A DNA stretch of 64,000 nucleotides from Collinsella tanakaei. Lineage in GTDB: Bacteria > Actinomycetota > Coriobacteriia > Coriobacteriales > Coriobacteriaceae. Both the position numbers and the translations under genes were made by a program. The stretch spans positions 1 through 64,000 of the forward strand of contig NZ_JACJMB010000006.1 in assembly GCF_016902615.1 (NCBI RefSeq). The letters run 5' to 3'. Below the pieces are notes generated by a model. That model searched no databases, was not told the DNA's origin, and saw nothing but the letters and a program-made list of their open reading frames with translations. Below are positions 53,376 through 55,691 of this stretch, in pieces; position 1 is the first letter of the stretch, and the number at the start of each line of letters is the position of its first letter.

Positions 53376-54290
53376 TTACGCGAACATGCCGGGGCGGTAA
53401 TGATAGCCGTTGTCGGCATGCGGGCAGAGCTGCCAAAACGCAACGGCACTCGCGGCGGCGACGTTTAGCGAGTCCACGCCGTGCGCCATGGGGATGCGTA
53501 TCGTCAGGTCAGCGCCGTGGATGGTCTTCGCCTGCAGGCCCGCGCCCTCCGTCCCCATGAACAGGGCGAGCCGCTCGATATCGTGCAGTGCGGGGTCGTC
53601 CAGCGAGCGCGAATCGTCAGCCAGCGCCATGGCGGCGCAGGTGAACCCCGCCTCATGCAGATCGGCGAGGCCGTCGTGCGGCCAGACGCGCGCCTCGCTG
53701 CCGATGCGCGTCCAGGGGACCTGAAACACCGTGCCCATGCTCACGCGCACTGCGCGGCGATAGAGCGGGTCGCAGCAGGTCGGGCTCACCAAGATGCCGT
53801 CGACGTTCAGGGCGGCGGCGCTCCGGAAGATGGCGCCGACGTTCGTGTGGTCGACGATGCCCTCGAGCACGCACACGCGCACCGGGCGCCCTTCCGCCCG
53901 CTCGACCAAGCCCGCCAGGAACGCCGGAGCGGGCGCGAGCACGGGACGGCGAAACGCCGCAAGCGCCCCGCGCGTGACGGTGAAGCCGGTGAGCCGCTCC
54001 ATCAGCTCCATTGGTGCGACGAACACCGGGATATCTGCCTCGGGACGCTCTGTCGTCACCCGCTCGAGCAGGGGCATGAGCTGATCGAGCCAGCGCTCAC
54101 CCATAAGGAAGCTCACCGGCTCGAGGCCCGCGGCGACCGCCCGTTCGATCACCTTGGCGCTCTCCGCGATGAAGATCCCCTTCTCGGGCTCGAGTACGCT
54201 TCTGAGCTCGCGCTCCGTCAGGCGGCAATACGCATCGAGCCGCTCATCAACGAGCGTGTCGATGCGGATGATCTGAGGCGATACAGCCAT
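53376..54290 (-). CDS. TrmH/SpoU-family RNA 2'-O-methyltransferase
   Basis: A 304-residue protein from the ATG at 54290, preceded by AAAGGAG. An N-terminal substrate-binding part has RELRSVLEPEKGIFIAESAKVIERA. The SPOUT methyltransferase domain carries the three family motifs: DHTNVGAIFRSAAALNVDG, LFMGTEGAGL and RIPMAHGVDSLNVAAASAVA. The rRNA or tRNA target is not determined. Confidence 0.9.
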   Translation of the reverse strand: MAVSPQIIRIDTLVDERLDAYCRLTERELRSVLEPEKGIFIAESAKVIERAVAAGLEPVSFLMGERWLDQLMPLLERVTTERPEADIPVFVAPMELMERLTGFTVTRGALAAFRRPVLAPAPAFLAGLVERAEGRPVRVCVLEGIVDHTNVGAIFRSAAALNVDGILVSPTCCDPLYRRAVRVSMGTVFQVPWTRIGSEARVWPHDGLADLHEAGFTCAAMALADDSRSLDDPALHDIERLALFMGTEGAGLQAKTIHGADLTIRIPMAHGVDSLNVAAASAVAFWQLCPHADNGYHYRPGMFA

Positions 54291-54509: not shown

Positions 54510-55691
54510 TTAAGAGCGCTTGCGGCCGAACAGGTGGCGTCCGGTGTTTTTCAGCTTGTCCACGAGCGTCGGGTCGGGGTGCGCCGCATCCCAGGCCTCG
54601 CGGCGGCGGCGCTTCTCGTACTCGTTGATGAGCGGCGCGCCGTAACCGTTCACGAGCTCGCGATACCACGAAACCATGTCGGCGAGGTCCTCTTCGTTGG
54701 GACGGCCCTTGTTCATACCGCCCATGAGCTTGTAGGGACCCCACGTGTCGAGACCGGGGCAGCCGTGCCCGGCGAGGAAATTCGCCTGCTTCGCACGGCA
54801 GATGCCGTCGATGTCCTTGCCGTACCACTTGCTCGCGCCGCCGTACGTCAAAAGCCCGAAGACGAACTCCCCTGGCCCGAGCGACGCCTGCAGCACGCGG
54901 GCAAGGTCATGGTCGATCTCGCCGTGGTAGATGCCGCTCGCGACACCGACGAGATGATATTGGCGCAGGTCGACCGCAGGATGCTTCTTGTCGACCGTCG
55001 CGATATCGAGCGTGTCGACGTCATCGGGAAACGCCGCAGCGATCGCGTCGACAACGCGCTTCGTGTTGCCGTGGTGCTTCGAGCGGTAGAGGATCATGGT
55101 GCGGATGCGCACGCCGCCATCCTCTGTCCCCGCAGCGGGCTCAGCGTTGTCTGCCGGTTCGGCGAACTGATCGGCCATCGAGCGCCGGCGATAGGTCACG
55201 AAGCGGTACTCGATGCCGGCATCCTCCTCATCGTCACCGATAAGAGCGGTATCGGATTCGCTCGCCACCTCCCAGTCGTCATCCTCATCGAGGTTCGGGA
55301 AATGCGTGTCGGCCAAGCGCAGGCAATGGGTCTTCGTCACGACCGCGACCGCGCACTGGGGCAGCAGCTGGCGATAGATCTCCTCGCCACCGATCACCCA
55401 CGCCTCCTCCACGTCGGCCACGGCCGCGAGGGCCTCGTCGACGGAGTGCACGACCTCGACGCCCTCGCGCGCAAAGGCCGCATCGCGCGTGAGCACGATG
55501 TTCCGACGGTTCTTGAGGGGCCTGCCGCCCGGGAAGCTGTCGAGGGTTTTTCGGCCCATGATGACGGGATGCCCGGTCGTGCACGCGACGAAATGCTTCA
55601 TGTCGGCTCGGTTCGAGACGATCATGTCGCCCTCGTAGCCGATGCCCCAGTCGTCGCTCACCGCGACGATGGCTGACAGCTTGCAAGCCAT
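54510..55691 (-). CDS. folA: Dihydrofolate reductase - flavodoxin fusion protein
   Basis: A single 393-residue frame with two domains. Residues 1-168 are dihydrofolate reductase: AVSDDWGIGYEGDMIVSNRADMKHF (Asp30 in the catalytic position), VIMGRKTLDSFPGGRPL and EAWVIGGEEIYRQLLP. A linker of about 30 residues follows. Residues 198-350 are a flavodoxin-like domain: LYRSKHHGNTKRV (FMN phosphate loop), VGVASGIYHGEID and GLLTYGGASKWYGKDIDG. A C-terminal basic tail is unique. thyA lies immediately upstream with 9 bases between, so folate recycling and dTMP synthesis are co-expressed. A flavin-linked electron supply to the reductase is a hypothesis. Confidence 0.88.
   Translation of the reverse strand: MACKLSAIVAVSDDWGIGYEGDMIVSNRADMKHFVACTTGHPVIMGRKTLDSFPGGRPLKNRRNIVLTRDAAFAREGVEVVHSVDEALAAVADVEEAWVIGGEEIYRQLLPQCAVAVVTKTHCLRLADTHFPNLDEDDDWEVASESDTALIGDDEEDAGIEYRFVTYRRRSMADQFAEPADNAEPAAGTEDGGVRIRTMILYRSKHHGNTKRVVDAIAAAFPDDVDTLDIATVDKKHPAVDLRQYHLVGVASGIYHGEIDHDLARVLQASLGPGEFVFGLLTYGGASKWYGKDIDGICRAKQANFLAGHGCPGLDTWGPYKLMGGMNKGRPNEEDLADMVSWYRELVNGYGAPLINEYEKRRRREAWDAAHPDPTLVDKLKNTGRHLFGRKRS

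What the first reader, a model, noticed from the sequence alone, without database searches (positions are those of the whole stretch)
54510..55691. Dihydrofolate reductase fused to a flavodoxin domain, next to thyA
One frame of 393 residues joins a DHFR domain (1-168) to a flavodoxin-like domain (198-350) with a recognisable FMN phosphate loop (RSKHHGNT). I know of no standard flavodoxin fusion of DHFR. Known DHFR uses NADPH directly and needs no flavin. The fusion sits 9 bases after thyA. Possible readings: flavin-assisted reduction of folates, channelling, or a chance joining of two genes of an operon. The domain boundary lies in an acidic linker with two internal Met, so a separate downstream protein could also be made.
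Basis: partly seen in the sequence, partly recalled or inferred. Interest (0 to 1): 0.8.

Follow-up and report, generated by a model that had tools for sequence, protein, structure and literature searches.

The report
Folate reductase fused to a flavodoxin
In several Collinsella gut bacteria the gene for the folate enzyme dihydrofolate reductase has joined, in two separate lineages, to its downstream neighbour, a flavin-binding (flavodoxin-type) protein; the joined protein is real and conserved, but what the flavin half does for folate chemistry is unknown.

Summary
In detail: window 55691-54510, minus strand, is one 393-residue frame with a Pfam DHFR domain (residues 5-169) and a flavodoxin domain (about 198-350), 9 bp after thyA. 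It is neither an assembly slip nor a chance joining. Ten of 45 Collinsella genomes carry the fusion; none of the ten has a separate close copy of either half. Both halves are under similar purifying selection (dN/dS about 0.19), while the acidic linker drifts (0.69) and varies only in whole codons. Trees place the fusions in two clades (eight genomes, two genomes); a single origin is rejected. The raw material is old: in all six flv-bearing genomes of other genera of the family, flv lies directly after dfr, three with a 4-bp ATGA/GTGA overlap. In 28 Collinsella, however, flv lies elsewhere, and some relatives have none, so DHFR does not need it. The DHFR half keeps catalytic Asp and NADPH-site residues; structure prediction gives two well-folded domains on a floppy tether. 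Best reading: stop-loss fusion of neighbouring genes, making one polypeptide with an ordinary NADPH-dependent DHFR and a tethered FMN protein of unknown client. Flavin-driven folate reduction remains possible but unsupported.

The parts
54510..55691 (-). fused gene dfr::flv, 393 aa, stop included
55185..55691 (-). DHFR domain, residues 1-169 (catalytic Asp30 codon 55602-55604)
   Evidence: dN/dS 0.193 in clade 1
55107..55184 (-). linker, residues 170-195: acidic, Ala-rich, unconserved, variable in length by whole codons; predicted disordered (177-190 pLDDT below 50)
54636..55106 (-). flavodoxin core, residues 196-352; alpha/beta flavodoxin fold
55062..55082 (-). FMN phosphate loop S-K-H-H-G-N-T, residues 204-210
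54513..54635 (-). C-terminal helical, basic extension, residues 353-393; shared by the family's flavodoxins, absent from the divergent homologues L101-L103
55701..56549 (-). thyA, thymidylate synthase, 9 bp upstream of the fusion
53376..54290 (-). spoU-family RNA methyltransferase, conserved downstream neighbour

Best explanation
Shown: the window holds a genuine two-domain gene made by in-frame loss of the boundary between two genes, dfr and flv, that are neighbours (sometimes with overlapping stop and start) across the family; this happened twice in Collinsella. Inferred: the product is one polypeptide whose first half is an ordinary NADPH-dependent DHFR recycling the dihydrofolate that ThyA makes, and whose second half is an FMN-binding flavodoxin-like protein that exchanges electrons with a separate, unidentified partner. 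The flexible acidic tether lets the halves act independently and fixes them at 1:1 production; no electron path from FMN to folate is required. The repeated fusion and the old neighbourhood suggest that the cell gains from co-producing the two, without showing that they touch.
For: Two Pfam domains in one frame. Census: ten fused of 45 Collinsella, with no second close copy of either half. Syntenic locus ffh-thyA-dfr-[flv]-spoU-ftsH in fused, adjacent and flv-less forms. All six flv-bearing genomes outside Collinsella have flv beside dfr; 4-bp stop/start overlaps in G114, G301 and G206. Two origins: nine fused genes as one clade rejected on the species markers (p-AU 8.4e-5), DHFR (3e-4) and FLV (0.011); with G315 added, one origin in 0% of 200 bootstrap trees. 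dN/dS 0.193 DHFR, 0.190 FLV core, 0.226 tail, 0.692 linker; five different linker lengths in clade 1 (21, 24, 25, 26, 27 residues), all in frame. Catalytic Asp, GR-x-T, L/I-T-R-D and GG motifs kept in the DHFR half. Model: most of both domains above pLDDT 90, linker below 50, pTM 0.52.
Against: Nothing here measures FMN binding, DHFR activity or a fusion-length protein in cells. Independence of the halves is inferred from sequence, from relatives that lack or have moved flv, and from a model built on a shallow alignment (44 rows); a low pTM cannot exclude a transient interface. Repeated fusion of adjacent genes is also a classic sign of functional partnership, which would point to a closer relation than I credit.
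Confidence: 0.62

Rival explanations
1. Neutral fusion: the stop codon between neighbouring genes was lost by chance, both halves still fold, and the tether has no consequence; the linker is leftover intergenic DNA.
For: Linker is unconserved in sequence and length; flv lies unlinked in 28 Collinsella and is absent from others; adjacency and overlap make such a loss easy.
Against: It arose twice, has been kept through eight genomes of one clade with only whole-codon linker changes, and neither half has been re-separated within a fused clade. In G021, G034, G073 and G081 roughly 90-160 bp separate the genes, so fusion from such a state needs more than one point mutation.
Confidence: 0.2
2. Functional partnership in folate or thymidylate metabolism: the FMN half passes hydride or electrons to a folate or pterin, or to a client that uses the tetrahydrofolate made by the DHFR half.
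For: Ancestral neighbourhood with dfr and two independent fusions. The best fold match is FldH, a flavodoxin-like protein that performs hydride transfer rather than one-electron transfer, so catalysis by this kind of domain has a precedent.
Against: DHFR retains its NADPH-site residues; relatives keep dfr without any flv; methionine-synthase reactivation finds no support, since the Met_synt_B12 domain gives only partial weak hits that do not follow flv; no fixed arrangement in the model.
Confidence: 0.13
3. The two halves are made as separate proteins, by an internal start at Met171 or Met199, or the fusion is an assembly error.
For: Two internal Met; G013 has a GTG with a fair Shine-Dalgarno match at the old start position.
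Against: The free-standing start codon is replaced in eight of nine fused genes and upstream pairing at the internal Met is weak (0.7 to -4.4 kcal/mol); Met171 is present in only three of the genomes compared; ten assemblies agree.
Confidence: 0.05

Closest known systems
Bacterial chromosomal DHFR (FolA/DfrA, Pfam PF00186)
   Same: Whole domain, catalytic acid, NADPH-site motifs, position after thyA
   Different: Carries a C-terminal flavodoxin domain; position of E. coli Trp22 is Val, and Val or Ile in all Coriobacteriales DHFRs compared here
Flavodoxin-like proteins FldH and HmuF of Fusobacterium nucleatum (8g64; PMC10404700)
   Same: Best fold match (VIA Z 16.0, 145 aligned residues, rmsd 2.9); phosphate loop of the G-N-T type
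   Different: 20% identity; heme cap not demonstrated here; longer C-terminal helix; fused to DHFR rather than in a heme operon; lead over classical flavodoxins under one Z unit
BilS, flavodoxin-like partner of bilirubin reductase BilR (PMC10769871)
   Same: A flavodoxin-like gene beside a reductase gene, and in one relative a flavodoxin-like domain within the reductase itself
   Different: Scores 20 bits against a cut-off of 155; partner is an Old Yellow Enzyme, not DHFR
DHFR-thymidylate synthase fusion of protists (from general knowledge)
   Same: DHFR joined to another protein
   Different: Here ThyA is a separate gene and the partner is a flavodoxin

Membership tests
Dihydrofolate reductase (PF00186) | Full-length family match above the curated cut-off | tested here: met
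   146 bits against 25, profile positions 2-159 of 159
Dihydrofolate reductase (PF00186) | Catalytic acid (E. coli Asp27) and Arg57, Thr113 | tested here: met
   Asp30, Arg62, Thr119 invariant in A2
Dihydrofolate reductase (PF00186) | NADPH-site residues: GR-x-T, basic residue after L/I-T, Gly-Gly pair | tested here: met
   IMGRKT, VLTRD, IGG
Dihydrofolate reductase (PF00186) | NADPH-dependent reduction of dihydrofolate | not testable with these tools
   needs an enzyme assay
Flavodoxin superfamily | Five-stranded alpha/beta flavodoxin fold | tested here: met
   pLDDT 87; VIA Z about 15 to D. vulgaris and Clostridium flavodoxins over 130-137 residues
Flavodoxin superfamily | Phosphate-binding loop S/T-x-x-G-x-T | tested here: met
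   S-x-H-H-G-N-T, one residue more than FldH
[quoted passage not shown]
   Trp-Tyr follows strand 4 in the window protein but these positions vary in the family; no FMN complex was modelled
Flavodoxin superfamily | FMN bound in the protein | not testable with these tools
   needs absorbance of the purified protein
BilS (NF045594) | Score over the curated cut-off | tested here: not met
   20.1 bits against 155
HemG (PRK11104) | Score over the curated cut-off | tested here: not met
   20.7 bits against 142
FldH/HmuF | Helical cap with heme-ligating His | tested here: inconclusive
   only a short helix (residues 318-323) lies between strand 5 and the last helix; heme ligation not assessed

The most novel reading that the evidence does not exclude
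The flavodoxin half is a folate-pathway flavoenzyme or dedicated electron donor: FMN hydroquinone on the flexible arm reduces a folate or pterin (or keeps a tetrahydrofolate-using partner reduced), so that the fusion is a two-cofactor folate reductase of strict anaerobes.
Probability: 0.1. Interest if true: 0.8.

Novelty: new variant of a known kind. Interest (0 to 1): 0.45.

Why it matters
DHFR is among the best-studied enzymes and a drug target; I found no report of a flavodoxin fusion in the open-access library searched. Collinsella offers a natural series (unlinked, adjacent, overlapping in related genera, fused twice) for testing what neighbourhood and fusion do, and it suggests a partner for an unassigned flavodoxin family of gut anaerobes.

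Tried and rejected
Assembly error or chance frame: rejected by ten concordant genomes. Single origin of all fusions: rejected. Phage or plasmid origin: phage hits are to DHFR, and two longer ones (Stenotrophomonas phage ANB28, Erwinia phage AH06) have no flavodoxin annotated; viral contigs gave none; plasmid hits checked are unfused flavodoxins. Fusion elsewhere: no flavodoxin match outside Collinsella lies in a frame long enough in the 396 phylum and 298 class genomes sampled. Methionine synthase as client: Met_synt_B12 matches are partial and do not track flv. Riboswitch near the operon: none over the gathering score in 50-62 kb. Promoter and terminator scan: no more than chance. A conserved functional neighbour of unlinked flv: none seen, neighbours differ between clades. 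A first dN/dS run had one row out of frame and was repeated.

Full report
The frame. Window 55691-54510 on the minus strand is one 393-residue frame. Pfam finds DHFR_1 over residues 5-169 (146 bits, whole profile) and Flavodoxin_5 from residue 199 (31.1 bits, cut-off 27). thyA ends 9 bp upstream. The finding's coordinates, domain limits and RSKHHGNT loop are right; it gave no strand.

Is the fusion real? A whole-genome census of the genus (45 genomes) and of the family (67 genomes) finds the fused frame in ten Collinsella genomes: G000, G008, G013, G016, G018, G023, G024, G076, G001 and G315. Named records with the fusion include C. ihumii GD8 and strains filed as C. tanakaei (An791, ET10, ET30), while the record C. 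tanakaei YIT 12063 has two separate genes. The fused genomes carry no second close copy of either half. In clade 1 the two domains have dN/dS of 0.193 and 0.190 (tail 0.226) against 0.692 for the linker, whose length varies (21-27 residues) only in whole codons. In eight of nine fused genes tested the start codon used by free-standing flv is replaced, and the retained internal Met has weak upstream pairing. This is what a translated single polypeptide should look like.

How it arose. All dfr genes of the genus that were looked at sit in one syntenic locus, ffh-thyA-dfr-[flv]-spoU-ftsH. Five Collinsella have separate neighbours (G021, G022, G027, G034, and G032 with about 0.5 kb between), 28 have flv elsewhere, and two (G007, G029) have none. 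In other genera of the family, six genomes have flv, and in all six it lies directly after dfr; in G114 and G301 the genes overlap as ATGA, in G206 as GTGA. Neighbourhood is therefore probably ancestral and fusion derived; the root of the family tree is not firmly placed, so the order of losses is less sure. Trees from FtsH, ThyA, SpoU and Ffh together, and from each half alone, put eight fusions in one clade and G001 beside unfused G027; G315, added to the marker tree, joins G001. One origin is rejected (p-AU 8.4e-5 for the markers, 3e-4 for DHFR, 0.011 for FLV); with G315 none of 200 bootstrap trees has one origin. One early fusion followed by several re-separations is the costlier alternative and is not strictly excluded.

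What the halves are. The DHFR half keeps the catalytic Asp, the conserved Arg and the NADPH motifs. It has Val where E. coli has Trp22, but Val or Ile stands there in all the Coriobacteriales DHFRs compared, fused or not, so this is unrelated to the fusion. The second half is a flavodoxin fold by prediction (pLDDT 87), closest to Fusobacterium FldH (VIA Z 16.0, rmsd 2.9 over 145 residues) and nearly tied with classical short-chain flavodoxins (Z about 15). FldH and HmuF bind FMN and carry out hydride transfer to anaerobilin (PMC10404700), so a catalytic role is conceivable, but FldH leads by less than one Z unit and its sequence similarity is weak (E 0.079). BilS and HemG models match far below cut-off. 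The full-length model has two confident domains, a disordered linker and pTM 0.52, as expected for domains without a fixed arrangement; the alignment was shallow.

How it most likely works. ThyA makes dihydrofolate; the DHFR half reduces it with NADPH; the flavodoxin half exchanges electrons with some other partner. Fusion makes the two in equal amounts. Steps shown: the gene, its conservation, its two origins, the retained residues. Steps inferred: FMN binding, independence, any benefit. The case for partnership rests on the ancestral neighbourhood and repeated fusion; the case against rests on 28 genomes with unlinked flv and others without it.

Limits. Whole genomes were searched for the fusion only in Coriobacteriia and in a sample of the Actinomycetota; one genome-contig scan with patterns from this protein found it in Collinsella alone, and Bacillota could not be surveyed by profile. 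The literature search covers open-access papers only.

Noticed in passing
window 55617-55619 (DHFR residue 25); A4 rows: The position of the highly conserved DHFR Trp22 is Val or Ile in every Coriobacteriales DHFR compared, fused or not, with Asn and Arg/Lys nearby where E. coli has Leu-Pro.
   Followed up: partly
window 54513-54635; A3 columns after 155: The family's flavodoxins carry a basic C-terminal extension with a very long last helix (model residues 138-175, then 181-192) that the divergent homologues L101-L103 lack; its role is unknown.
   Followed up: partly
L069, L054, L097, L098 between dfr and flv: The gaps before free-standing flv in G021, G034, G073 and G081 share a GGTATCAT stretch that could be a -10 element of an flv promoter, absent from the fused and overlapping forms (seen by eye).
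   Followed up: no
L053, between dfr and flv: In C. phocaeensis about 0.5 kb with what looks by eye like a glyoxalase-type gene lies between dfr and flv.
   Followed up: no
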